The notes beneath the pieces were generated by a model, which ran no database searches, was not told the DNA's origin, and worked only from the letters and a program-made list of their open reading frames with translations. Positions 21,077 to 36,300 of a stretch of DNA of 49,031 nucleotides are shown piece after piece. The position numbers and the translations under genes were made by a program. The DNA comes from Gammaproteobacteria bacterium (GTDB taxonomy: Bacteria; Pseudomonadota; Gammaproteobacteria; Xanthomonadales; SZUA-5): positions 1-49,031 of the forward strand of contig JAUIFV010000011.1 of assembly GCA_030430155.1 (NCBI GenBank), given 5' to 3'. How positions within the stretch are numbered: position 1 is the first letter of the stretch; each line of letters opens with the position of its first letter.

Positions 21077-22339
21077 CTAGCCGAGACGCCAGCGCGGGAA
21101 CGGATCGGCATAGCGCTGCCACATCGCCGGGCCCTCGCGCATCTCGCGTTCGGTCAGCAGGCAGCCGTCCAGGTCGGCGCGCAAACCGGCCTCGTCCAGG
21201 CCAATGCCGATCAGCGCCAGCTCCTGGCGGCGGTCGCCCCAGGCCGGGTCCCAGAGTCGGCTCATCGCCGCGTACTCGGCCGGGTCGCTGACCTCCTCGG
21301 CGCTGGGCAGCGCAGCAGTCAGGCGATCACCGGTGTGGATCGGCTGATCGACCAGCTTCTGGTCCACTCGGTCACGGGAAGCGAACCAGAATCCGGCCGC
21401 CTGATGCTGGGTTGCCGCGCCAACGGTGGCCAGTTCGCCCACCCAATCCATTCTTGAGGCGAGCCAAAAGAAGCCCTTGCTGCGGATCACCCCGCCCAAT
21501 CCCTCGTTGATCAGCCGGAAGAAGCGCTGCGGGTGAAAGGGTCTGCGGGCCTTGTAGACGAAGCTGGTGATGCCGTAGGCCTCGGTCTCCGGCGTGTGTT
21601 CACCGCGCAGCTCCTTCATCCAGCCCGGCGCCAGCTGGGCGCGGACGAAATCGAAACGGCCGGTGCCCAGCACGCTGCCCAGCTCGACCTCTGCGTGCTT
21701 GGCCTCGATCAGCTGCGCATCGCGATTGAGGGCCTTGATTACCTGCTTGACCCGATGCAGGCCGTCGGCGTCTACCCGGTCGGTCTTGTTGAGAACGATG
21801 ACGTCGGCGAACTCGATCTGTTCGCTAAGCAGATTGACCAGGCCGCGCTTGTCGTCCGGTCCGGCCGCTTCGCCGCGGTTCTGCAGGCGGTCGCTGGAGC
21901 AGAAGTCGGCAACAAAGCTCTCGCAGTCGACCACCGTCACCATGGTGTCCAGACGAGCCACATCGGAAAGCGAAAAACCGTCCTCATCGCGCACCGCGAA
22001 AGTGGCGGCGACCGGCATCGGTTCGGAAATGCCGGTGGACTCGATCAATAGGTAATCGAAGCGCTGCTCGTCGGCGAGGCGCCGGACCTCCTTATGCAGA
22101 TCGTCGCGCAGCGTGCAGCAGATGCAGCCGTTGCTGAACTCGACCAGGGTCTCCTCCGTTCGCGACAGCGCGCCGCCGCCGTCGCGGATCAGCTGCGCGT
22201 CGATATTGACCTCGCTCATGTCGTTGACGATTACCGCAACGCGCTTGCCTTCGCGGTTGCGCAGGACGTGATTGAGCAGGGTGGTCTTGCCGGCGCCGAG
22301 GAAGCCGGAAAGCACGGTCACGGGGAGTGTGGCGGGCAT
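21077..22339 (-). CDS. zigA: Zinc metallochaperone GTPase ZigA (COG0523)
   Basis: G3E GTPase of the Zur-controlled ZigA/YciC type, thought to deliver zinc to client enzymes under zinc starvation. The 420-residue product has P-loop GFLGAGKTT (12-20), the C-I-C-C metal motif (72-75), an ESTG switch segment, NKTD for guanine recognition, and a full CobW_C domain (about 280-410). The ATG at 22339 was chosen because it begins the conserved [11 protein letters not shown]; a longer frame to 22402 would run into the operator. The ribosome-binding site is poor. A promoter overlapped by a Zur-like box lies directly upstream, and a second box serves the divergent genes. Confidence 0.93.
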
Positions 22340-22368
22340 GGTGGAGGGGCGCGAATGAAAACCGAGAC

Positions 22369-22402
22369 GTGATAACATAACGTTTCGTTGTACCCGTGCC
22401 AA
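22369..22402 (-). promoter_or_regulatory. zigA promoter overlapped by a Zur-like operator
   Basis: Read on the minus strand, TTGGCA (22402-22397) and TATGTT (22379-22374) are 17 bases apart. The -10 lies inside GTGATAACATAAC (22369-22381), which matches GTTATAACATAAC at 12 of 13 positions. Repressor binding here would block the promoter. The operator ends 29 bases before the zigA ATG. Confidence 0.75.
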
Positions 22403-22443
22403 AGGTTGGGCGATCCGGCGCCGACGGCGAGTTATGTTGGCAT

Positions 22444-22456
22444 GTTATAACATTGC
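22444..22456 (+). promoter_or_regulatory. Zur-like operator upstream of the small gene and DUF1826 gene
   Basis: GTTATAACATTGC matches GTTATAACATAAC at 11 of 13 positions, including the palindromic GTTATAAC core. It lies 28 bases before the GTG start of the divergent gene pair. A further GTTATG is just upstream at 22431. Confidence 0.7.
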
Positions 22457-23313: not shown

Positions 23314-23439
23314 CGGGGGCTGCTGCGTTGGGGCGGCGTACAACGCTGCGTCTTGCGGAACGATGCCTTATTGCGGACGATCTGGGTGACAACTCGGCAA
23401 ATGTGAGTTCTTTAGGCGGATTCCTCGCCATTGGCGGAC

Positions 23440-24057
23440 ATGGCAAACACGCCCCCGACCCGACTCAAACAGATTCTCGGCGATGTTGTTCGTGCGCTCG
23501 CGCGCGCCAAAGTTCGTCACGCGCTTGCGGGCGGCATGGCGCTGGCTGCGCACGGTGTACCCCGCGCCACGAAAGATATCGACTTTCTGATCGACGCCGA
23601 CGATGAACAAGCGGCAGACCACGCGCTAGGCGAACTTGGCTTCACACGCGAGGTTCCGGGACAGGGATTCGCTCGTTACGTGCGCCACCCGTTGCCGGAG
23701 CTTCCAGGGATCACCGAGTGGGTAGACTTGCTCTACGCCCGTCGTGAGCTGGGTCGGCGGCTGCTGCAGGACGCGCAAAGTGATCCCATCGCATGGGATT
23801 CGGGCTCATCGCTCACCGTTGTTCCGGTCAACGGGCTGATCCTGATGAAACTGATGGCAATGGTTAGTGACCCACGACGCGTTCAGGACCGCCAGGATAT
23901 TCTCGACCTGTTGCGACAGCATTCCACTGATCTACAGCACAGCTGGATCTCCACCGAAGCGGCCAAACTGGGCGAAGCCTATGAACAAGCGTGGCGACAA
24001 CTCCTCGACGCCCATCAATCTGGAGCAGGAAGCCCCGTCCCAATCGTCGGCTTGTGA
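23440..24057 (+). CDS. Nucleotidyltransferase-fold protein (AbiEii/MenT-like or DUF6036-like)
   Basis: The 205-residue product has a nucleotidyltransferase core: A-G-G-M-A-L-A-A-H-G (30-39), then the metal-binding pair Asp46 and Asp48 in ATKDIDFLI. A segment E-W-V-D-L-L carries the likely third carboxylate. Proteins of this type include the toxin halves of type IV toxin-antitoxin systems and stand-alone enzymes of unknown role. No cognate antitoxin of the AbiEi type is seen next to it. The ATG at 23440 is preferred over a TTG at 23431. Its 3' end is overlapped by a possible small gene. Confidence 0.7.
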   Translation: MANTPPTRLKQILGDVVRALARAKVRHALAGGMALAAHGVPRATKDIDFLIDADDEQAADHALGELGFTREVPGQGFARYVRHPLPELPGITEWVDLLYARRELGRRLLQDAQSDPIAWDSGSSLTVVPVNGLILMKLMAMVSDPRRVQDRQDILDLLRQHSTDLQHSWISTEAAKLGEAYEQAWRQLLDAHQSGAGSPVPIVGL

Positions 24058-24217: not shown

Positions 24218-26365
24218 TTAAAACGACCCGCTGAAGGTCAAAGTCACGAAGATCGGATTGACCTGCCGGCGATCCTCGGTGCGCAGCAGCGGGCCGCCGC
24301 GGTCGCCGTCGAAAAAGCGCCGGTCGCGAAAGCTGATCTTGTCACCGGCATTGCGCACCGCCAGTCGGGTTCTGAATAAACCTAGAGCGCTGCCCTCCAC
24401 AAAGGCCCCATAGGCATCGCCGGTGCGCAGCCGGTCGATCTCAGCAACTCGGTAGACGTCGCCGTCGTTGGCGGCGCTCCAGGTCAAGCCCCAGCTTAAC
24501 CGTTTGGACTCGATGTCATGGCGGAACTCGGCGTTGATCAGCGGCGAGTAGACTCGGGAAAGCGAGCGCGTGGCCGCGATGAGGGGATCGTCGAACTCAC
24601 TCTTCAGCCACTGCGCGTCCACCGTCAGGCGCGCGCCCTTCAGGGCTTTTTCCAGCGGCAGCGTGAGCTGACTCTTGATGCCGCGATAGCTGGCGTCGCC
24701 GGCGTTGGCCAATCCAGGCGCGCCGGACGGCAGCAGCACCTCTTCCAGCACGTCCTTGCGGGCTTCGTAGAAGGCCTCCAAGTTCAGCGCCAGGCCGTCG
24801 GGGCGACGGAAATCCATCGACAAGAAATAGCGGGTCGCTTGATCCGGACCGAGGTCGGGGTTGCCGGCCGCGGAGGTGCCGTCGTTGAGTGAGGCCGAGG
24901 CCGCAAAATCGCCGAAATCCAGCTGGCCGACGCGGTGGCGTGCGCCCAGCTGCCAGCTGAGCTGCTCGGAGCTGCGCCAGGTCAGCGCCAGCGCCGGCTT
25001 GATGAAGTTGAAGGACTGGCTCTGATTGGTTTCGCCAGAAACCGAGATGGTCGAGTTCTCGATCGCCAGCTCGCCGTCCACGGTGATCGCATCGCTCAGC
25101 CGCCAGCTGGCCCGGGCAAAGGCCTCCAGGCGCTTTTCCTCGACCTGCACATCGGCGCCGGGCAGGGCAATGGCCACCGGTCCCGTGCCATCGTCGACCG
25201 CCAGCGCAAAATCGCTGTCGCGGCGGTTGTAGGCCAGCTCCACGCCGAATTCCGGACGTATGGCGCTCTCGGTGGCGCGCGCCGCGGTGAGTCTGGCAAC
25301 CAGCTCCAGCGGTCGCGCCGAGGCGTCGACCAGGGTGTTGGACAGCAGGTTGCCGTCGGCATCGCGCAGCGGGTCGCTTTGCGCTTCGTTGCCGTCTTTG
25401 AAGGTCAACAGACCCAGCGTCTTCCAGTTCCAGTCGCCGCGCTGCACGCTGTAGTCGGCGCCCAGCTCCAGGTCCCAGCGGCTGTTGCTGAAGCGGGTCA
25501 GCGCGGTGCGGTCGGGCTGCCCGTCCGGGAATCGACCCAGGTAGATCTCACCCGGCTGGGCGAAGTAGTAGCGATAGCGGCCCAGCCGCGCTGACAGCTT
25601 GAGTATTCCGCCGGCGACCGGCCCTTTGGTCTCGCCGGACAAGTACGCATTGACCAGCGTCGACGGCAGATCCGTGACCACCGTGGACTGCAGTTCGCCG
25701 TCGGCGTCGCGCAGCACCCGGTTGGTGTAGAAGGGGAACTCCTCCCAGAAGGCGTTGGCGCGCAGCGAGCTTTCCCAGCCCCCGCTGGCGCGGCTGAAGC
25801 TCAAATCCACTCGCGGATAGAGCTTGCCGTTACCGTTGCGCTCCAGTTCGGCCGACCAGGTGCCGGACGTCGCTTCCCGCGCCAAAACCACGTTGAGGAT
25901 CAGCGACTGACCCTGGGCCTCGGCGGTCGAAGCGCTGCGGATCAGCTCGATGCGCTCGACCTGGCTGGCCGCGATCCGAGACAGCGCATCGACCACCCCG
26001 GTCTTGGATACCGGCCGGGCGCCGTCGACCAGCACGTTGCCGCCGGCGGCCCCGTAGCCGCGCAGATCGGAGTCGCCCTCATCGAGGACGAATCCTGGCG
26101 TGCGCCGAACCATGTCCAGCGCGGTCTGCGGGCCGGAGACGGCGTAGTCTGCGGCGGGGTAGACAATGGTGTTGCCGTCAGCGGCCGAGGTCGAAGTGTC
26201 CTCGGCCTGCACTTGCAGGCTCAGAACGATTCCTGCGAGCAGCGCGGTCAGCCGGCAGCTTGGCCAACTGACGCGCTGATACAGTCGGCAAAATGTCAGT
26301 GCCACGGGCTTGAGCGTCCGATCACAGATCGGACCCACAACGGCGACGACGGGATCCGGGAGCAT
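24218..26365 (-). CDS. TonB-dependent outer-membrane receptor
   Basis: The 715-residue product has a signal peptide ending near residue 54 (LLAGIVLSLQVQA), a plug domain (about 75-165, with MVRRTPGF, RGYGAAGGNVLVDG and VERIELIRSAST) and a C-terminal beta barrel of alternating strands ending in FVTLTFSGSF with a terminal Phe. It uses the proton motive force relayed by TonB to import a scarce ligand. It is the last gene of the proposed minus-strand ABC operon that begins at the operator at 32312-32324; the 15-base spacing to the permease upstream supports co-transcription. A zinc or zinc-chelate substrate is inferred from that operator only. ATG at 26365 has AGGA about nine bases upstream; the long N terminus leaves a downstream GTG as an alternative start. 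Confidence 0.88.
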   Translation of the reverse strand: MLPDPVVAVVGPICDRTLKPVALTFCRLYQRVSWPSCRLTALLAGIVLSLQVQAEDTSTSAADGNTIVYPAADYAVSGPQTALDMVRRTPGFVLDEGDSDLRGYGAAGGNVLVDGARPVSKTGVVDALSRIAASQVERIELIRSASTAEAQGQSLILNVVLAREATSGTWSAELERNGNGKLYPRVDLSFSRASGGWESSLRANAFWEEFPFYTNRVLRDADGELQSTVVTDLPSTLVNAYLSGETKGPVAGGILKLSARLGRYRYYFAQPGEIYLGRFPDGQPDRTALTRFSNSRWDLELGADYSVQRGDWNWKTLGLLTFKDGNEAQSDPLRDADGNLLSNTLVDASARPLELVARLTAARATESAIRPEFGVELAYNRRDSDFALAVDDGTGPVAIALPGADVQVEEKRLEAFARASWRLSDAITVDGELAIENSTISVSGETNQSQSFNFIKPALALTWRSSEQLSWQLGARHRVGQLDFGDFAASASLNDGTSAAGNPDLGPDQATRYFLSMDFRRPDGLALNLEAFYEARKDVLEEVLLPSGAPGLANAGDASYRGIKSQLTLPLEKALKGARLTVDAQWLKSEFDDPLIAATRSLSRVYSPLINAEFRHDIESKRLSWGLTWSAANDGDVYRVAEIDRLRTGDAYGAFVEGSALGLFRTRLAVRNAGDKISFRDRRFFDGDRGGPLLRTEDRRQVNPIFVTLTFSGSF

Positions 26366-26380
26366 TGCCGATCGTCCTGG

Positions 26381-27760
26381 TTAACCGGCCAACACCCGCC
26401 ACCGCGCCCCGTACCAGAGCAGGCCGGCCAGCAGGCTGAGCTGGATCAGTAGCCCCAGCGCATTCATCGCGTCCCCCTTAGGGTCCGGTGCGGAGTAGGC
26501 CGGCAGACGGTCGAACTCGGCCACGCTGAGTCCCTGGCCTGCCAGCAAGGACCGAAAGAGCGCCTCGTCCCAGCGCTGCTTGTGCGCCTCGGCGGACTGT
26601 AGGAACTGATCCAGCGCGGTCTGATCACTGCCGGCCATGCCTTCGGAATTCGCGCTCAAAGCCTGGGTCGGTGACAGCCAGCTCAAGCGCTGCCGCCAGC
26701 GCTGCTGGGCCTGCCGCTGCGCCGCCGCCGCGATTCGCGGCTGCTCCATCGCATCGGCAATGAAGCGCTGCTGGACGTAGTAGCTGCGGGTCCAGGCCAG
26801 CGCGTCGGCCTCGGTATTGATGCTCAGCTCCGGGTGATCGCTGACGTAGTTGCCGAACAGCTCTGTGCGGCGCACCTGAGCTTCCTGTGCCGCACGCCGT
26901 TCGCTGCTCAGTAGCGCCAGCGCCGATGGCGTCGGCGCAATGCGCTCGACCGCGCTGTCCAGCACCGCCGGGATCACCCACAGCAGCGCCACCCACAGCG
27001 CCACCAGCCAGGCCAGCGCCCCGCCGGCCGAGCCGGTACGACTGACCAGCCAGGCGCAGGCGCCGCTCCACAGTGCCGCCCAGGCCAGCAGCGGCAGCAG
27101 CCACAGCAGCCAGCTCAGCCAGTCCGTCGAGCCGTCCACCGCAGCCACGGTAACCGCGCTGACCACGATCAGCGGCAGCAGCAGCGCGAGCAGGCGCAGA
27201 GCGTGGCGACGCCGGTAGACCTCGGGCAGCGCGCGCTGCGCCGCCAGCAGCGGGAAGCGGCCGGCCTCACGGTCGGCGCCGGGCTGCGCATAGAGCAGCG
27301 CCATCAGCGCCAGAGGCAACAGCACGATGGCCACGAAGCCCAGATCGAATCGTCCCGCCGTCAGCAGCAGCGGGCTCTGCAGCTCGCGGCCCTTGCCAGC
27401 CTGCGCCGGTCCGCTGAACAGCGAGATGCGCAGCATGGTGTTGCTGCGGTCGAAGATGCCCACATCCAGCGCCGCCAGCGTCGGAATGCCCATGTTGACC
27501 GGGCTGCGTTGCATCGAGGGGAAGCCGACGTAGGGATCGGCTTCCGCAGTGCCGGCCTCAATTGCTTGGATGCGGCCGCGTCCACGCTCGCTCCGGGCTG
27601 ACTCCGATTTCACAAACTGAGCCTGGTCGGCGCGCAGCGCCTGCACTGAGCTGAAGCCGATGGCGCCGGCGTAGATCAGCAGCAGACACCAGGCCAGCAG
27701 CACCACCACTGCGCCCCTGTCGCGGATCAACAAATACCATTCCTGACGCCAAGTGCTCAT
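26381..27760 (-). CDS. ABC transporter permease, DUF3526 type (intact)
   Basis: The 459-residue integral membrane protein has an N-terminal helix (about 17-38), a long periplasmic or soluble loop, a group of helices from about 135 to 290 (Leu/Ala/Trp-rich), a second soluble part and a final helix near 430-455. This matches ABC-2-like permeases carrying DUF3526, which usually occur as a pair with one ATPase. The ATG at 27760 overlaps the end of the upstream permease (stop 27757-27759), so the two were translated in tandem. The upstream partner is broken by the inversion at 28882-30069, so this gene may now lack its promoter and partners. Confidence 0.85.
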   Translation of the reverse strand: MSTWRQEWYLLIRDRGAVVVLLAWCLLLIYAGAIGFSSVQALRADQAQFVKSESARSERGRGRIQAIEAGTAEADPYVGFPSMQRSPVNMGIPTLAALDVGIFDRSNTMLRISLFSGPAQAGKGRELQSPLLLTAGRFDLGFVAIVLLPLALMALLYAQPGADREAGRFPLLAAQRALPEVYRRRHALRLLALLLPLIVVSAVTVAAVDGSTDWLSWLLWLLPLLAWAALWSGACAWLVSRTGSAGGALAWLVALWVALLWVIPAVLDSAVERIAPTPSALALLSSERRAAQEAQVRRTELFGNYVSDHPELSINTEADALAWTRSYYVQQRFIADAMEQPRIAAAAQRQAQQRWRQRLSWLSPTQALSANSEGMAGSDQTALDQFLQSAEAHKQRWDEALFRSLLAGQGLSVAEFDRLPAYSAPDPKGDAMNALGLLIQLSLLAGLLWYGARWRVLAG

Positions 27761-28884
27761 GGCAGCACCTCGTGCTGGGCGCGCTGGTAGGCAAAGCCAA
27801 GCATGATCGCGGCGGCACCCAGCCATCCCAGCAACACCGCCAAGGCCCCTCCCGGGCGCGATAGATCGCCGGCCGCGGCGGGCTGGTAGTCCCACCGTGG
27901 CGCCTTCGCCCAGAGTGCCGGCTCGGCCTGATAGGCGAAATCCTGGCCCTTGGCATTCTCAGTAAAGTCGGCATTCAAGAAGCGCTGCAGCTCGCGACGG
28001 TGCGCCTCGGCCCGGTCGGTGAAGTGGCGGTGATTGCGCCAATCGCTGCCCGCCGCCCACTGCGACAGCTGATCCACCGCCAGCAACGGCGAGATCGGCG
28101 CCCAGGCCAGTCGCCAGCCATCCTGCGCGGCGATCTGCACCCAGTACTCGCCGTAATGGTGGTCGTAAACCGTGTTGGCGTGCTCTTCGCCAGCCTGCAT
28201 GGCGATACCGGCGAAGCTGATCGGCAGATCCTCCTCCTTGCTCACCCCGTACTCGGCCAGGGTGCGCTGCAGCAGCTCGGTGCGGCGCTGATCGCCGCTG
28301 GAGTGGCCATCGATCCCCTGCGACTGCGAGACCCGCACCTCGGCCCAGAAGGCCTCCGGACTGGGCAGCGGCGCCAGCTGCACCGCGGCGTTGGTAGCCA
28401 GCCGCGGTCCGATGATGGTCGCCAACAGCCACAGTCCAAGCAGGCCGGCCAGGGCGGTGCGCGCGTTGCGCGACAGCAGCGACAGCGTCAGGGTCAGCGC
28501 GATCCAGATCAGCGCGTACAGCCCGTAGGTCAGCGCCAGCCAGGCGGCGCGGGCGGGATCGGCCATCGCGGCCAGCAGGGTCAAAGGCAGGATCAGCAGC
28601 ACCGCCAAGAGCACCAGCATCAGCGCCTTGCCCAGCAGCAGCGCGCCAGCGCTGGCCCCCTGCACCCACTGCAGCGGCAAGCGCTGGCTCTCGCGTTCTG
28701 CGGCCCACAGCCCGGCGCCGGCGACGATCAGCAGCAGCGGCAGACCCCACTGCAGCAGCGCGGCGGCGGACTGCGGCAGCACTTCCCCGGCCGCCGACTC
28801 GATCGGCCGCAGCGCGGCGGGATTCTGGTAGTGGGCTTCCATCCATACGCCCACGCCCAGCGCCTGACTGACTCCGGGATCGAA
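27757..28884 (-). pseudogene. DUF3526 ABC permease, C-terminal fragment (first permease)
   Basis: The frame can be read on the minus strand from the breakpoint at 28884 (F-D-P-G-V-S-Q) to the stop at 27757, 374 residues after the junction Phe. It contains the conserved VWMEAHYQN segment, transmembrane groups and a final helix. It lacks the usual first transmembrane helix and the loop ending in YAFKP. That missing part lies on the plus strand at 29788-30069. Joined, the two give about 468 residues, close to the 459 of the neighbouring permease. A GTG/ATG within the fragment could still start a truncated protein, which would not be expected to assemble. Confidence 0.85.
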
Positions 28885-29043
28885 CTGCGCTGGCTGAGCA
28901 CGCAGATGCTGGTCCTGCCGCAGCTGAACAGCCTGCTGCTACTGCCGCTGCTGGTGCTGGCACTGCTGTTGGCGCTGCTGCTGGTCAGCCTGCCGGCGGC
29001 GCGGCAAGTGGCCGCCAGTCAGCCGGCCGAAGCGCTGCGTTGA
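28882..29043 (+). pseudogene. FtsX-type permease, C-terminal fragment inside the inverted segment
   Basis: The frame E-L-R-W-L-S-T-Q-M-L leads into a Leu-rich transmembrane helix and ends in L-P-A-A-R-Q-V-A-A-S-Q-P-A-E-A-L-R, the standard end of MacB/FtsX-type ABC permeases (P-A-R-x-A-x-x-x-x-P-x-E-A-L-R). It has no start of its own. The matching N-terminal part is on the opposite strand at 30069-32272. Confidence 0.85.
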
Positions 29044-29078
29044 TCTCAAGCAAGTACTTACCACTGGAGCTGTAGTCC

Positions 29079-29786
29079 ATGTCCACGATTGCCCTGCACG
29101 GCGTAAGCAAGCGCTTCGGCAGCACCCAGGCGCTGAATCAACTCGAACTTGAGGTGGCGGCGGGTGAGGTCTATGCCCTGCTCGGCGCCAACGGTGCCGG
29201 CAAGTCCACCACCCTCAATCTGCTGCTGGGCTTTTTGCGTGCCGACGGCGGCGAGGTCCGGGTCAACGGCATCGATCCGGCGGTGGACGCCAATGCGGTG
29301 CGCGCCAGCATCGCCTATCTGCCCGAGCAGGTCGCGCTGTATCCGAACCTGAGCGGGATCGAGAATCTGCAGTATTTCGCCGCGCTGGCCGGGCGCCAGC
29401 TGGGCACCAACGAGTCGATGGAGCTGTTACGCAGCGCCGGGCTGGCGATGGCCGCGCACGGGCGCCGCCTGGGCGAGTACTCCAAGGGCATGCGGCAGAA
29501 GGTCGGCGTCGCTATCGCCCTGGCCAAACGGGCCAAGGTGGTGCTGCTGGATGAACCGCTGTCCGGCCTGGATCCGTCCGCGGCCAATGAGGTGACCAAG
29601 CTGCTGCGCGAGCTGGCCGACGGCGGCGCCGCGGTGCTTCTGGCCACCCACGATTTGTTTCGAGCGCGTCAGGTGGCCGATCGTATCGGCATTCTCAAGC
29701 AGGGTGAGAAACGCGCCGAACTGCAGGCCGCCGATATCGATGCGGCGCAGCTTGAGGCCCTCTATCTGCAGCACATGGAGGCCTGA
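29079..29786 (+). CDS. ABC transporter ATP-binding protein
   Basis: The 235-residue ATPase is complete, with Walker A GANGAGKST (36-44), Q-loop region, signature YSKGMRQKVG, Walker B KVVLLDEPLSGLD and the H-loop in ATHDLF. It resembles ATPases that drive ABC-2 or DUF3526 permeases. It lies on the inverted segment: it is 35 bases downstream of the FtsX C-terminal fragment and one base upstream of the DUF3526 N-terminal fragment, in the same reading order as the proposed ancestral operon. In its present orientation it faces away from the operator at 32312 and has no obvious promoter, so it may be silent. GGAG lies about ten bases before the ATG. Confidence 0.93.
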   Translation: MSTIALHGVSKRFGSTQALNQLELEVAAGEVYALLGANGAGKSTTLNLLLGFLRADGGEVRVNGIDPAVDANAVRASIAYLPEQVALYPNLSGIENLQYFAALAGRQLGTNESMELLRSAGLAMAAHGRRLGEYSKGMRQKVGVAIALAKRAKVVLLDEPLSGLDPSAANEVTKLLRELADGGAAVLLATHDLFRARQVADRIGILKQGEKRAELQAADIDAAQLEALYLQHMEA

Positions 29787-29787
29787 G

Positions 29788-30069
29788 ATGAGCACCTCGA
29801 TGCTGGCCACCGCCGGCCTGGAAGCCGCCCACACCTGGCGACTTTGGCATCGCGACGGCCGTTTGCTGGCGATGCTCGGCCTGGTCATCGCCTGCGTGCT
29901 GGCCGCAGCGCTGATCGGCAGCAACGCCATGCAGCAGTGGCAGCGCGAAGCCGATGCCGCGGCGCAGATCGATCGCGAGGTCTGGCTGGGTCAGGGCGAA
30001 GGCAACCCGCACAGCGTGGCGCACTTCGGCCAGTACGCCTTCAAGCCGGCCGCCCCGCTGCACTGGTTC
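29788..30069 (+). pseudogene. DUF3526 ABC permease, N-terminal fragment inside the inverted segment
   Basis: 94 codons from an ATG that follows the ATPase stop by one base. It has an N-terminal soluble stretch, one transmembrane helix (about 28-46) and the family segment HFGQYAFKPAAPL, and stops matching at Trp-Phe at 30069. The frame continues to 30408 through sequence that is antisense to the FtsX gene and has no meaning there. The rest of the protein is on the minus strand at 27757-28884. Confidence 0.85.
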
Positions 30070-32272
30070 AGCAGCGGCAGGCCGATGGCGATGCCCCAGC
30101 CCAGCACCCGCAGCACTTCGCCCAGCGAATCGCGATACAGGCGGCTGGCGCTGGCGCCCAGGGCGGCACGCACTGCCATGTCGCGGCGCCGCTGCACCGC
30201 CCACAGCCGCGACAGCCCGGCCAGTCCGATGGCGACCAGGATCCAGGCGCAGACCGCCAGTGCGCTGAGCAGCTGGGCGAGCAGGCTGGACTGCCACAGC
30301 TGCCGGTCACGCAGCGCAGCCATACTGGTCAGCTCATACAGCGACTGCTCCGGATCAACCTTGGCCATCGCCGAGCGCAGCTGCGCATCGGTCGGCGGCG
30401 GGCCCTGATGGCTGACCACCACGTAGAGATTGGCATTGGGCCGCTGCCGCACCGGTCGATACAGCGTGGGCGCGGTCTGCGCTTGGGACAGGTCGTAGCG
30501 CACGTCATCGGCAATGCCGATCACGGTCACCGTCTCGCCGGCACCCTCCAGCGCTTCGGGCAGCAGCAGCTGCGCGCCGATGGGGTCGCGGTCTGGCCAC
30601 AGGCGCAGCGCCAGCTCGTGGCTGACGATCGCCACTTGCGGCGTTTCCAGCTTGTCTTCAGGGGTGAAATCGCGACCGGCCACCAGGGTGATGCCCAGCG
30701 CCTCGAAATAGCCTTCGCTGACCCGATTGGTGCGCGGCCGCCAGGGCAGGGGGCGTTCGGGCTCATCCGGCAGACGCAGGTCGACCCCGGCGCCGCTGCC
30801 GGCGGCGGCACGCTCATCGGTGGCCGGCACTCGTTCGCCCCAGGCGGCGTGCTGCACGCCGGGCAGGGCGCTCAGTTCGGATCCGAGCTGATCGTAGAAG
30901 CGCGAGGTGGCGTCGGTGCGGCTGTCGTATTTGGCCCAGGGCAGGGCGACCCTGAAGCTGAGTCTGGATTCGCTGGCGAATCCGCTGGGGTGAGTGTGCG
31001 CGCGCAGCGCGTCCAGGGCGAACTGCGCACCGACGCCGACCAGCACCAGCGCCAGCGCCACCTGCACCGCCAGCATCGCACGCTGCTGGCGACGCTCGCG
31101 CGGCGAACCCATGCTGCGCTGACCGCCATCCTGCAGGCAGGTCGCCGGATCCACCTCGGCCAGCCGCCGCATCGGCAGCGCGCTGGCCAGGGCCGAGGCC
31201 AGCACCGCCAGCGCCAGGATGGCTAGCACCGGACCGGTGGCCAGTTCGATCTGCATCCACTCCGGCAGCGTATCGCCCAGCCCGCGCCAGAGCAGATCCA
31301 CGCTCGCCGCAGCGATCGCCAGCCCCAGCGCCGCGCCAAGCAGCGACAGCAGCAGCGAGCGCCCAAACAGTCCCGCCATCAGCCGCCCCGGCGGCGCGCC
31401 CAGCGCCAGCTGCAGAGCGATGCGACCCTGCCGCGCATGCATGCGTGCGGCGAAGGTGTGCGCGCTGTTGACGATCGCCAGCAGCAGCAGCAGCGCGACG
31501 GCGCCGCACAGCAGCAGCATCGCCGGGCGCAGCTGGCCGACGTAGAGATCGCTCAGCGACCGCACCCGGTACTGCAGTCCGCCGTGGGCGTTGGGAAACT
31601 CCGCCTGCAGCTGCTGCGAGACCCGATCCAGACCCTGCTGCACCTGCGCCAGGGTGGCCCCGTCATCCGCGCCACGCCGTGGGCAACCCGGAAGTCGATG
31701 GCGTCGATGCGGTCGGGAAAAATGCCGCTGGAGCGATACATCCAGCGGTCGGCCGGAAACTCAAAGCCCGGCGCGGTCACCCCAAAGACCCGATAGCCCG
31801 GATAGGCGTCCAGGGTGATGGTCTTGCCGACGATGGACGGATCACCGCCGAAACGGGTGCGGAACAGCCGATCAGAGAGAATCACCCCGAAGTCGCGCTG
31901 CCGGTCAAAGGATTCCGGCCACACCTCGCCGAACTGCATGGGCACGTCCAGCACCTCGAACAGCACGCGGGTGGTGATCACCGTCGGCACCTCTTCCGGC
32001 TGATCACCGCTGCTCATGTTGTAAGCGGCACCGGCGCCATAGGAAGCGACCGCACTCAGCAGCGGCAGCCGCTCTGCTATCTCACGCAGCTCCCGCCCCG
32101 ACAGCGTCCCGCCGTCCATCGAGTCGATGTGAACCAGCCGATCTGGGTCGGTGAAAGGCAGCGGCTGCACCAGCAGCGACCAAACCGCCGAAAGGATCGC
32201 CGCAGCCAGTCCCAGACCGGCCGCCATGGCCAGCACGACCATGGCGTCTTCGCGCCAGATTTTTGCTCGCAT
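30069..32272 (-). pseudogene. FtsX/MacB-type ABC permease, N-terminal part, with a frameshift
   Basis: Read from ATG 32272, the protein has an N-terminal helix (LGLAAAILSAVWSLLV), a MacB-type periplasmic domain, two helices with a conserved R-I-A-L-Q-L-A-L-G-A-P segment, a second periplasmic domain and a penultimate helix ending at the breakpoint (IAIGLPLL). It is broken twice. A one-base loss in the G run at 31658-31661 shifts the frame (M-T-G-P-P-W should continue as M-T-G-A-T-L-A-Q-V). The last ~53 residues lie at 28882-29043 on the other strand. Restored, it would be about 788 residues, a normal length for the large FtsX-type permeases with two periplasmic domains. It is the first gene after the operator at 32312. 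Confidence 0.85.
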
Positions 32273-32664: not shown

Positions 32665-34725
32665 ATGAGATGGCTAAAACCTTTGCTAACCGTTGTTGTG
32701 CTGGTTCTTATTTCAAGCGTCCTGGGTGTTTACAACGGTGTTGAGATACGCAAGCGTGTTTACCCGCAAAAGTTAAAGACATATTTGACCAGTTATTACC
32801 CGCATCATCTTGTCAGTCGGATTGTCGTCATGCAGCCCGGCTCACAACTTTACAACATTGAAGTCCTAGAGCGTTTAGATCGGTTATCAAGTTTTCACGA
32901 TAATGTTCTGAATAGGTATCTATATAAAAATCTGATTAGCAGCCTAACGGACGAGCAATTATCAGCAGTCGTCCTGAAAATTCCATTCGCCCAGAGAAAG
33001 ACATTCTTGCCGCTTTATTCAAGAGCGGCGAACTACCTCATGCGTTCTGTAGAGACGAAGGAGAATGCTTATAGCGAAAAACACCAACTGCAGAGCCTTA
33101 TCGAAATCATCTCAGGGGACGATGCACTCCAGCCGTTATACAACCATCTTATAAGTAGCAAACTAGAAGACATCATGTCGCCGTTCTATTTTGAATTGAT
33201 GATCGCCAGCATGGTTAAGAACGATCATCCAAAGTGGAACTTATTAACAGACCGATATATGTCCGCAAGTATTGATGCGAGCTCGAAAAAAGCGATCTAC
33301 CGAAAAGTATCCCGGTATGCCCGGCCAGATGCTTCATTGTTTGCCTTTATGAAGCGCCTTGCCGATGACGCTGGATTGCCTCCAGATGAGCGGCTTCTCT
33401 TCTTAATGCGTGTGATAGCGCTTCATCCACATGATAAGAAAATAATCTCTGAATTCAGGCGCGTAGTAACGGCGATACCTAGCACCAGCGACGAATACGA
33501 TTGGGAGCTGGGCGATAGCAGCTGGGCACAATCGTATTCAAGGCAACTGGATGAAAACATTGCTGAGGAGGTTTTTGAGCGAGTCATCTTCTTGTCAAGA
33601 GACATCAATCATGAAGTGACCGCTTCTGCGTTTCATTGGATTTTAGACAGAAACCCAGAGAAGGCCGTCAGTATTTATCGTCAAATTGTCGGTGATCAAG
33701 ATTCATCCCTGAGAAAAGCGATGATCGTTCTACTGGCTAGACACGACGTTTCCATACCGGTGGGTTCTATTGACTGGGCGTTTGTGGGCAGTCATCCGAG
33801 GCAAACTTTCTTTTGGCATAATTACGCTTATGTGTATGGTTCAGCGGCGACCGCGCTTTATGAGAAACTCTCAGGTCATGATTATCTCGGGACTGGGAAA
33901 AGGCTTCCACTCAAGAAAACGGCAAGTGTGCAGCAGTGGAAAGAATTTATTGACACTTATCCATGGCACCCCGGAACAGATGACGCTTACTTGCAACTTA
34001 TGAGTATCTATTTCCATGAGGCCAACTTTAGTGAATTCTGGTGGATTGTTAACCAATATGGCTCCCGGGTATTGGCTGATAGAGACAGCGACGAATATGT
34101 AGCCTTTATGGTTCGAGAGGCGCTCTTACTGGATAATGATTATGCTACACGATCGAGTTTTCATCGCTCCGCAGGTACATTGCTTCGAAACCCCATAGGA
34201 CAGATCATGCTGAATGGGCCAGATTCAAGGTTGCTGAGTTCATTGCGGTGGTTGCAACGAGAGAAAAATCGAAAATATCTGGCACTCATAAACGAAGATG
34301 CGAGAACAATCGAGGTCTACATCAATACCCTCAATGACTATTCCAATCTCGCTTCTTCGGCGAAATTTGAGTTCGTTGAAGACATTCAGCCTTCTCAGTT
34401 TTATTCGTTATTCTACGGCGTCAAGGCGCCACGGAATGTTGATGTCTCGCAATCCGAGAGTTTGCGCCGCGCACGCTTGCTAGCGAGAGCATCTCTGGCA
34501 GCCTGGGATCGCGAATGGCAGCAGGCTGATTTTTTTGGTCGCTCGCTATACAAACCCTTAGCTTATTGGATCGTAAAGCATGGACATTCATCAGAGATGG
34601 CGATTCTATTTAAGCCGGTTCTTGGTAGGCATTATAATCTGTTGGCGAATGTTGAATTAGAACGAATCAGTGATTGGCGCTACCGGCGGTTGGTGGAAAA
34701 TATCCACAGGACCCTGGGGAAATAG
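32665..34725 (+). CDS. Unrecognised 686-residue protein with an N-terminal membrane anchor (AT-rich island gene 1)
   Basis: I do not recognise the family. One hydrophobic segment (about 5-24) serves as signal anchor or uncleaved signal; the rest is soluble, helical and rich in aromatic and charged residues, with spacing reminiscent of TPR/HEAT-like helical repeats (for example the segments around 170-300 and 430-520). No catalytic motif is apparent. Codon use differs sharply from the neighbours, with about 40-45% GC and many A/T-ending codons, a sign of recent horizontal transfer. The ATG at 32665 begins MRWLKPLL. A second membrane protein starts one base after the stop, so the two very likely act together. 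The position next to transposase remnants fits an accessory, possibly defence-related, cassette; that is only inference. Confidence 0.75.
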   Translation: MRWLKPLLTVVVLVLISSVLGVYNGVEIRKRVYPQKLKTYLTSYYPHHLVSRIVVMQPGSQLYNIEVLERLDRLSSFHDNVLNRYLYKNLISSLTDEQLSAVVLKIPFAQRKTFLPLYSRAANYLMRSVETKENAYSEKHQLQSLIEIISGDDALQPLYNHLISSKLEDIMSPFYFELMIASMVKNDHPKWNLLTDRYMSASIDASSKKAIYRKVSRYARPDASLFAFMKRLADDAGLPPDERLLFLMRVIALHPHDKKIISEFRRVVTAIPSTSDEYDWELGDSSWAQSYSRQLDENIAEEVFERVIFLSRDINHEVTASAFHWILDRNPEKAVSIYRQIVGDQDSSLRKAMIVLLARHDVSIPVGSIDWAFVGSHPRQTFFWHNYAYVYGSAATALYEKLSGHDYLGTGKRLPLKKTASVQQWKEFIDTYPWHPGTDDAYLQLMSIYFHEANFSEFWWIVNQYGSRVLADRDSDEYVAFMVREALLLDNDYATRSSFHRSAGTLLRNPIGQIMLNGPDSRLLSSLRWLQREKNRKYLALINEDARTIEVYINTLNDYSNLASSAKFEFVEDIQPSQFYSLFYGVKAPRNVDVSQSESLRRARLLARASLAAWDREWQQADFFGRSLYKPLAYWIVKHGHSSEMAILFKPVLGRHYNLLANVELERISDWRYRRLVENIHRTLGK

Positions 34726-34726
34726 A

Positions 34727-35608
34727 ATGATCGTTTCTATAATCGCACTGGCGTTGTTCAGTCTGTTATGTTGTCTGATGATTTTTTACCTTTATGCGGC
34801 CGGCTCCAAAGGCAGAGACGGATCGATACGGAATGAGCTGAGAGTATTGATAGACGGTTTGGGTGATGCTGAAAAGAAAATCAATGCCCTGGTTGAACTA
34901 TCTAAGGTTTTAACGTCTCAAATTCCTTGGTGGGAAAGAAGTCTCTCGTCCATCGGCGTGATTGCGTTTGTTAGCATGACGCTTGCTACTACAGTGCAGA
35001 CTACCAAGTCTATTCTTACCGAGAGCAAACTTGTTGAAGTCAATACTGAAATGGACGAGCTGCAAAGTAAAATCGATAACGCCGAGAGTTTGATAAAGTC
35101 TATCGCAGATGTGACTCTCAAACAAAGGATTGCTCATGGTCTTCTTGACGAGGGCGGTGAGGAAATTTTGGAGCATCGTTTAGCGAGTCTGACTCAAAGA
35201 GAACGAATGACCGATACCGAGGCTTTGGAGGCCTACAGTATTGCAATGGCGCTAGGTCGGTATAAAAGTGCTGTCTCTATCATCGAAGGATATGAGACTT
35301 TGCTTACCTCTACTGGCCCCTCTGATCTCGTTTCGTTGGCAGAGTATTATTATTTGGTAGGGATTGAGGAGAAATCGTCAAATATGCTAGCGGATGTAAT
35401 GTTGAGGTCCGAACATTTGAGCCAAGGAGCGGAAATCAGAGCGATTATTCTAAGCGTTGGATTAAGAATGAATATTGAAAAGCCGGAGGCCATTCGTAAG
35501 GTTCAATCAATACTTAATGTCCCCGAGCCGAAGGCCAGGCAGGTTGTGGATGTGGGGCTTGCCGCGTTAGAAGAGGGCAGAGTGAAGCTGAGATCACAGA
35601 CAGAGTGA
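34727..35608 (+). CDS. Unrecognised two-helix membrane protein with coiled coil (AT-rich island gene 2)
   Basis: The 293-residue product has two hydrophobic helices, at about 3-24 and 73-90. Between them is a short charged helical stretch. After the second helix comes a predicted coiled coil (about 95-130, with heptad-like TEMDELQSKIDNAESLI) and then a helical C-terminal region from about 165 that reads like TPR-type repeats (EALEAYSIAMALGRY, SLAEYYYLVGIEE). The ATG at 34727 was chosen because GGGGA lies about eight bases upstream and it directly follows the stop of gene 1. Composition is AT-rich like gene 1. The two helices with a helical tail suggest a membrane scaffold or sensor for gene 1. 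No family name can be given. Confidence 0.75.
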   Translation: MIVSIIALALFSLLCCLMIFYLYAAGSKGRDGSIRNELRVLIDGLGDAEKKINALVELSKVLTSQIPWWERSLSSIGVIAFVSMTLATTVQTTKSILTESKLVEVNTEMDELQSKIDNAESLIKSIADVTLKQRIAHGLLDEGGEEILEHRLASLTQRERMTDTEALEAYSIAMALGRYKSAVSIIEGYETLLTSTGPSDLVSLAEYYYLVGIEEKSSNMLADVMLRSEHLSQGAEIRAIILSVGLRMNIEKPEAIRKVQSILNVPEPKARQVVDVGLAALEEGRVKLRSQTE

Positions 35609-35701
35609 AACGCGATCATGAAACGCCCCGACTTTCCCGGAGGCTCTTTCCCTTGAGAGGATGGGTAATCCCCCCATTTCTAACCACCACCAATAGTGGA
35701 G

Positions 35702-35800
35702 TCATGCAGCCATGGCGAGCTTTTGCCTTGGTGTGATGCCGCCGATGGCTGTGTTGGGTCGTTCGTTATTGTAGGTCCACTGCCATGCAGACGCTATTTG
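35702..35800 (-). pseudogene. IS3-family transposase (OrfB) C-terminal remnant
   Basis: On the minus strand the last ~32 codons before a TGA at 35702-35704 read W-Q-W-T-Y-N-N-E-R-P-N-T-A-I-G-G-I-T-P-R-Q-K-L-A-M-A-A in pieces. This is the typical end of IS3-family OrfB integrases, with the final catalytic-domain segment YNxxRPN. Nothing of the DDE core remains upstream; the sequence runs directly into another transposase remnant. Confidence 0.8.
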
Positions 35801-36133
35801 AGACACCCCGATTTGAGAGGGGCAGTCGCCCTCGGCGGCACCTGCGCTTCGATTCGCCCGCGCTTGCCGGGATGCAGCGCTCGGCCGGTCTGGTCGACCA
35901 GATCCAGATACTGGGCCTGGTTGATGGGTAGTAGCAGTTGCTGCGGATTGCCGAAGATGGGACCGAGCGGGTCAGCGACTTTGCGGCGATTGGCCTCGAT
36001 CGGCGCAATGCGCCGCTGCGCCGAGGTGTGATCACTGCCGGGCAGATCTTCGGCCATGCCGGCCCGTATCGGATTGAGGTCGACGTAGGTCATTGCCGAC
36101 AGGATCGCCGTCTCGTCTTCCAGTCGCTGGCAG
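35794..36133 (-). pseudogene. Second transposase remnant, C-terminal part
   Basis: About 110 codons on the minus strand contain CQRLEDETAILSAMTYVDLN followed by PIRAGMAE and SDHTSAQRRI, then QYLDLVDQTGRAL and HPGKRGRI. Those segments match the C-terminal portion of the large Y1/IS200-like transposase proteins common in gammaproteobacteria. The N-terminal catalytic half (HUH and Tyr motifs) is missing; upstream sequence in the same open frame (to 36624) does not look related. Confidence 0.7.
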
Positions 36134-36300
36134 TAGGGCAGGGTGCAACTGCGTAGCTGCAGGTAGCGGGTCGGTGGGCCAAGGCTGTGAGGTCGTTCGT
36201 TGCGTGTGTTCATGAGCAAATTCTTGTTCCTCGCCGGGAGCTGAGCAATTACGTTGGGAGGTAATTGCCGAGAGCTAGCCGTGTGGTGGAAGCTAGGCCC

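What the first reader, a model, noticed from the sequence alone, without database searches (positions are those of the whole stretch)
28882..30069. Internal 1.2-kb inversion scrambles a Zur-type ABC/TonB-receptor operon
Seen directly: the halves of a DUF3526 permease (29788-30069 plus; 27757-28884 minus) and of an FtsX-type permease (30069-32272 minus; 28882-29043 plus) lie on opposite strands with mutual breakpoints at 28882 and 30069. Re-inverting the segment makes the DUF3526 gene continuous in frame (W-F to D-P-G-V) and the FtsX gene continuous if one C is restored at 30069. The restored order FtsX, ATPase, DUF3526, DUF3526, TonB receptor is a tidy minus-strand operon behind an operator. 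It could be a phase switch that turns the transporter off, a one-off rearrangement, or a misassembly in a mixed population.
Basis: partly seen in the sequence, partly recalled or inferred. Interest (0 to 1): 0.85.

Follow-up and report, generated by a model that had tools for sequence, protein, structure and literature searches.

The report
Small inversion breaks zinc-type transporter operon
A 1.2-kb stretch of DNA has flipped inside a transporter operon that looks zinc-regulated, cutting two genes in half; the scars suggest a one-off break-and-rejoin accident, not a reversible on/off switch.

Summary
The inversion (28882-30069) is real relative to every informative homologue examined. The first DUF3526 permease is split inside a motif that lies in one uninterrupted frame in 33 of 33 informative loci (of 38). 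The displaced plus-strand fragment is the C-terminus of the broken ADOP/FtsX permease. FtsX has a second frameshift near 31667.

The breakpoints carry no inverted repeat beyond chance, and no serine recombinase was found in the genome; tyrosine recombinases were not searched. Re-inversion would not repair FtsX. A phase switch is unlikely; an illegitimate-recombination inversion that disabled the transporter fits best. Without reads an artefact cannot be excluded.

"Zur-type" is supported: the box core occurs at two places in the 5.06-Mb assembly, before this operon and before a ZigA-like gene. Such boxes also precede the homologous system in 8 fetched loci. The anatomy resembles Caulobacter znuGHI/znuK. 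No ZnuA was found, so the broken system may have mattered.

The parts
28882..30069 (.). inverted segment, about 1.19 kb, relative to the homologous operons examined
28878..28886 (.). left breakpoint: DUF3526 C-half meets the FtsX C-terminal fragment; a 4-base word is shared in inverted sense with the right breakpoint
   Evidence: sequence printed
30065..30073 (.). right breakpoint: DUF3526 N-half meets FtsX; about 7 bp of FtsX coding length missing at the join of the two FtsX pieces
29788..30069 (+). N-terminal 94 residues of the first DUF3526 (ABC-2 type) permease
   Evidence: no Pfam hit on its own
27757..28884 (-). C-terminal 375 residues of the same DUF3526 permease
   Evidence: PF12040, E 7.8e-28
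29079..29786 (+). intact ABC ATPase, now pointing against the rest of the operon
   Evidence: PF00005, E 3.3e-28
28882..29043 (+). C-terminal 53 residues of the ADOP/FtsX permease
   Evidence: no Pfam hit on its own
30070..32272 (-). rest of the ADOP/FtsX permease, with a second frameshift near 31667
   Evidence: PF02687, PF12704; TIGR03434 ADOP, 372.5 and 98.7 bits in the two pieces, cut-off 622.3
26381..27760 (-). second DUF3526 permease, intact frame
   Evidence: PF12040, E 5.3e-16
24218..26365 (-). TonB-dependent receptor, intact frame
   Evidence: PF00593, PF07715
32310..32321 (.). Zur-box-like palindrome upstream of the operon
22442..22453 (.). the only other copy of that box core in the assembly, 40 bases upstream of the ORF of the ZigA-like gene
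21077..22402 (-). ZigA-like COG0523/CobW GTPase (putative zinc metallochaperone)
   Evidence: PF02492, PF07683; NF038288, 582 bits, just under its cut-off of 600

Best explanation
A zinc-starvation transport operon, inferred to be under Zur, in the order ADOP/FtsX permease, ABC ATPase, two DUF3526 permeases, TonB receptor, suffered a small inversion. Two nearby breaks, one in FtsX and one in DUF3526-1, were rejoined with the middle piece flipped, with about 4 bases of shared sequence at most and a loss of about 7 bp on the FtsX side. Shown by sequence: the flip, the matching DUF3526 halves, the net loss in FtsX length, the second FtsX frameshift, and the lack of inverted repeats. Inferred: that it arose in the cell by illegitimate (alternative) end joining or template switching, that it is irreversible in practice, and that it disables the transporter, because the ATPase and the DUF3526-1 N-half now face away from the operator while DUF3526-1 and FtsX are truncated.
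For: The halves meet without a gap in homologues, and 33 of 33 informative loci, of 38 examined, are continuous across the break. The FtsX C-terminal fragment matches a homologue's C-terminus. Net loss of about 7 bp at the FtsX junction (of 35 homologues 34 have 38 residues and 1 has 37; window 35 residues plus 2 bases). Longest inverted match near the breakpoints is 5 bases, reached by 1461, 1794 and 1974 of 2000 random position pairs at flanks of 20, 30 and 50 bases. No serine recombinase found. Second FtsX frameshift. Besides the region itself the assembly holds only matches of up to about 90 bases.
Against: No reads were available. The displaced pieces are still open frames, which fits a recent event but also an artefact or a polymorphism. 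No Ku was found, so classical NHEJ is not the route. No ZnuA was found, so losing this system might be costly. The 7-bp estimate rests on distant homologues and paralogues, listed at 25-36% identity; the frame alone demands a loss of at least 1 bp. Tyrosine recombinases were not searched.
Confidence: 0.8

Rival explanations
1. Assembly or library artefact: the cells carry the uninverted operon and the contig is wrong, through chimeric molecules or a consensus error in a mixed population.
For: The genome is a 287-contig assembly, no reads were seen, the displaced frames are undecayed, and DUF3526-1 is one open frame after re-inversion. The FtsX frameshift near 31667 could be another error.
Against: Two reciprocal junctions lie in one contig with no repeat to mislead an assembler. 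A single chimeric molecule would make one junction, not a balanced pair (general knowledge). The neighbouring ATPase, DUF3526-2, TonB receptor, CobW-type and SecD genes are intact frames.
Confidence: 0.13
2. Reversible phase switch that turns the zinc-type transporter on and off.
For: Re-inversion gives an open DUF3526-1 frame. Loss of an important zinc system would be more tolerable if reversible (no ZnuA found).
Against: No flanking inverted repeats beyond chance, no serine recombinase found, about 7 bp lost at one junction, FtsX frameshifted elsewhere as well, no second copy of the region in the assembly. Tyrosine recombinases were not searched.
Confidence: 0.05
3. The pieces are separate, full genes and the arrangement is ancestral.
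For: Each piece is an open frame.
Against: 33 of 33 informative homologous loci are continuous across the break, which falls within a conserved motif. In one search the matching open frames are 483-840 aa in all 41 listed rows other than the window's own (393 aa).
Confidence: 0.01

Closest known systems
Caulobacter crescentus znuGHI (CC1518-1520) with TonB receptor znuK (CC1517), Zur-repressed (PMC4176598; abstract and passages seen)
   Same: ABC-2 ATPase plus two ABC-2 permeases beside a TonB-dependent receptor, with a Zur box. DUF3526 is found in Caulobacter vibrioides alone among the 14 control genomes, and Caulobacter is not among the 11 of 14 controls in which ZnuA is found, as in the window's genome.
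   Different: The window has an ADOP/FtsX permease as first gene and the receptor last, and is broken by the inversion. That the Caulobacter DUF3526 hits are znuH or znuI was not checked. The box has no GTTA-N5-TAAC form.
Spontaneous small inversions in bacterial populations (PMC3411829; abstract and passages seen)
   Same: Inversion joined at short shared sequence without a dedicated recombinase.
   Different: The deduced cut-off for true inversions there was 12 bp of junction homology; here about 4 bases at most, with a net loss at one junction. The study itself treats short-homology junctions as possible library chimeras.
Invertons (PMC11892184; passages seen)
   Same: A short DNA segment flipped within or across genes.
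   Different: Invertons are described there as flanked by 10-40 nt inverted repeats and flipped reversibly by an invertase; no such repeats here.

Membership tests
Inverton / phase-variable inversion | Flanking inverted repeats of about 10-40 nt | tested here: not met
   longest inverted match 5 bases, chance level; definition from passages
Inverton / phase-variable inversion | Site-specific invertase available | tested here: inconclusive
   no serine resolvase family match in the assembly (96.64% complete; 10 of 14 controls have one); tyrosine recombinases not searched
Inverton / phase-variable inversion | Precise, reversible exchange with both orientations in the population | tested here: inconclusive
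   about 7 bp net loss argues against precision; no second copy in the assembly; no reads to count orientations
Illegitimate-recombination inversion | Little or no homology, with small losses at the junctions | tested here: met
Illegitimate-recombination inversion | Ku-dependent end joining (one possible route) | tested here: not met
   no Ku match in the genome (1 of 14 controls, Bacillus subtilis, has one); that other routes need no Ku is recalled
znuGHI/znuK-like Zur-regulated system | ABC-2 type ATPase with two ABC-2 type permeases | tested here: met
   once the inversion is read through; here both permeases are DUF3526 proteins
znuGHI/znuK-like Zur-regulated system | TonB-dependent receptor beside it | tested here: met
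   receptor also next to the ATPase in 4 of 6 relatives scanned
znuGHI/znuK-like Zur-regulated system | Zur box upstream | tested here: inconclusive
   core of the E. coli motif (quoted in PMC6103462, passages) matches exactly, but the full 20-base motif has 3 mismatches and the GTTA-N5-TAAC form used for Caulobacter is absent from the window
znuGHI/znuK-like Zur-regulated system | Zur-dependent expression and zinc transport | not testable with these tools
   needs expression and growth assays; a zur gene was not searched for

The most novel reading that the evidence does not exclude
The inversion is a standing polymorphism, or a repeat-free switch, that toggles the zinc-type ABC/TonB system in the population: re-inversion reopens the DUF3526-1 frame and puts the ATPase back behind the operator, with the already frameshifted FtsX dispensable. 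Cells in the present orientation would live on zinc obtained in other ways.
Probability: 0.06. Interest if true: 0.75.

Novelty: new member of a known kind. Interest (0 to 1): 0.32.

Why it matters
Small balanced inversions are easily missed by ordinary annotation, which would list truncated fragments here. Both junctions lie in one contig, so this is a clean example of an inversion with loss and almost no shared sequence. It also adds sequence evidence that ATPase/DUF3526/TonB-receptor operons carry Zur-like boxes outside Caulobacter, in a genome where ZnuA was not detected; if the zinc reading is right, the inversion hits a zinc route that may have been important.

Tried and rejected
Phase switch: rejected as best explanation. 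Second copy or other orientation elsewhere in the assembly: none; apart from the region itself only matches of up to about 90 bases. Close uninverted relative: none found. The two genus-mates (84% and 80% complete) have no DUF3526 match; in the family G006 carries a distant homologue (33%), with 67% DNA identity over about 390 bases of the ATPase gene. The ZigA-like gene is 71-73% identical in G003 and G006. Among named genomes the best match is Steroidobacter gossypii at 44% (records very near the window's genome may be left out there). Ku-dependent joining: no Ku found. Papers naming DUF3526: none in the library. Promoter and terminator scan: 0 promoter-like sites and 2 terminator-like sites, not above shuffles. 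Paper searches: invertons, intragenic inversions, small inversions with microhomology, Zur with TonB receptors. A phase-variation review was seen in passages only (PMC11868660); the 2024 Nature paper on intragenic inversions was seen only as an entry in its reference list.

Weak spots: the longest-frame rule picked a wrong-strand frame for some homologues, so C-terminal matches there come from fewer than the 15 loci; one search repeated the test with frames chosen by the match. No chance estimate was made for the boxes in the homologous loci.

Full report
OBSERVATION. The region 28882-30069 reads as an inverted segment. Re-inverting it in a script gives a continuous DUF3526 frame. Homology makes this independent of frame arguments. 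In relatives the N-terminal piece (29788-30069 +) and the C-terminal piece (27760-28884 -) map to adjoining positions of one protein, ending and starting on the same codon in L021, L022 and L024-L028 among others. The N-piece is short and gives a hit above 35 bits in 18 of the 33 informative loci. I examined 38 related loci (L006-L043). Five (L015, L016, L018-L020) begin too late to judge. In all 33 others the break point lies in one open frame with at least 90 residues upstream, within a conserved motif; several of these loci come from one genome or genus. In the order-wide search 37 of 398 genomes, own included, match the C-half at E <= 1e-30, and all 41 listed rows other than the window's own lie in open frames of 483-840 aa, against 393 in the window.

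FtsX SIDE. Pfam and NCBIfam see the minus-strand pieces as MacB/FtsX and ADOP-type permease (each piece is below the ADOP cut-off). The 53-residue plus-strand piece 28882-29043 matches an ADOP homologue near its C-terminus (L048 787-836 of 838, E 4e-5; L054 E 0.007; others weaker), beyond where the middle piece stops. In an alignment with 35 homologues, 7 of them paralogues from the window's own genome, 34 have 38 residues between two anchors spanning the junction, 1 has 37, and the window has 35 residues plus 2 bases. The simplest reading is a net loss of 7 bp; the frame alone demands at least 1 bp. FtsX also has a second frameshift near 31667, in the linker between the periplasmic and FtsX domains.

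BREAKPOINTS. The two junctions share a 4-base word in inverted sense (sequence). The longest inverted match near them is 5 bases, no better than random position pairs: 1461, 1794 and 1974 of 2000 reached it at flanks of 20, 30 and 50 bases. No serine recombinase and no Ku were found in the assembly (5,057,966 bases, 287 contigs, completeness 96.64, contamination 0.25). Tyrosine recombinases were not searched. Apart from the region itself, the assembly holds only matches of up to about 90 bases.

OPERON AND REGULATION. The restored order is ADOP/FtsX, ATPase, DUF3526, DUF3526, TonB receptor. Of six relatives whose neighbours were scanned, four (L021, L022, L024, L025) have a TonB receptor just upstream of the ATPase; L026 has two peptidases there, and the one L028 neighbour scanned is a spermidine-synthase-type protein (L023 and L027 were not scanned). 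No FtsX match above 35 bits appeared in the fetched DUF3526 loci other than the window's own, so the FtsX gene at the head of the operon is not a shared feature. The core of the E. coli Zur box (motif quoted in PMC6103462, passages seen) occurs at two places in the window; 100 shuffles gave a mean of 0.02, and one shuffle reached 2. It occurs nowhere else in the assembly. One copy is upstream of this operon; the other is 40 bases upstream of the ORF of a ZigA-like COG0523 GTPase (582 bits against a cut-off of 600). Against this, the full 20-base motif matches only with 3 mismatches, and the GTTA-N5-TAAC form is absent from the window. Boxes of one or the other form lie upstream of the ATPase or its receptor in eight loci: L022, L024, L025, L028, L014, L017, L038 and L040. 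None was found in L021, L023, L026 or L027; among the short loci 5 of 30 had any hit, one of them (L018) not upstream of the ATPase, and many short loci hold little upstream DNA. No zur gene was searched for.

KNOWN SYSTEMS. In Caulobacter crescentus, Zur represses znuGHI, an ABC-2 ATPase with two permeases, and the TonB receptor znuK (PMC4176598, abstract and passages seen). DUF3526 is found in Caulobacter vibrioides alone among the 14 control genomes. ZnuA is found in 11 of the 14, Caulobacter not among them, and not in the window's genome. The window operon therefore works like, and may belong with, znuGHI/znuK; zinc transport itself is not shown.

MECHANISM AND VERDICT. An inversion with almost no shared sequence and a small loss is what illegitimate joining leaves, and not what site-specific inversion leaves: invertons carry 10-40 nt repeats and an invertase (PMC11892184, passages seen). 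For spontaneous inversions in Salmonella the deduced cut-off for true events was 12 bp of junction homology (PMC3411829, abstract and passages seen), so the present case lies below what that study accepted, which is also a reason to keep the artefact reading open. After the flip, transcripts from the operator would run antisense through the ATPase and the DUF3526 N-half (inferred), so the transporter should be off while DUF3526-2 and the receptor remain in sense. The undecayed frames mean that the event is recent, polymorphic, or an artefact; only reads can decide. I score it as a confirmed but essentially ordinary inversion in an interesting operon.

Noticed in passing
window 32665-35608: Two long ORFs (686 and 312 aa) of low GC (about 46-51% per kb against 59-70% on either side) with no Pfam match lie just beyond the operator, suggesting an acquired pair.
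   Followed up: partly
window 35832-36134: A roughly 300-bp element with full or partial copies at 74-88% identity on other contigs of the genome (C287, C96, C100, C102, C173) and more in genus-mates.
   Followed up: no
window 35658-35788: 131 bases 94% identical to a contig of genus-mate G001, far above other matches in the region.
   Followed up: no
window 23431-24057: AbiEii-like nucleotidyltransferase domain protein between the ZigA-like gene and the operon (36 bits).
   Followed up: no
G000 whole genome: No ZnuA family match although the assembly is rated 96.64% complete; the zinc supply route is unclear if the DUF3526 system is dead.
   Followed up: partly
G000 whole genome: At least 17 FtsX/ADOP-type permease matches at E <= 1e-20, an expanded family in this genome.
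   Followed up: no
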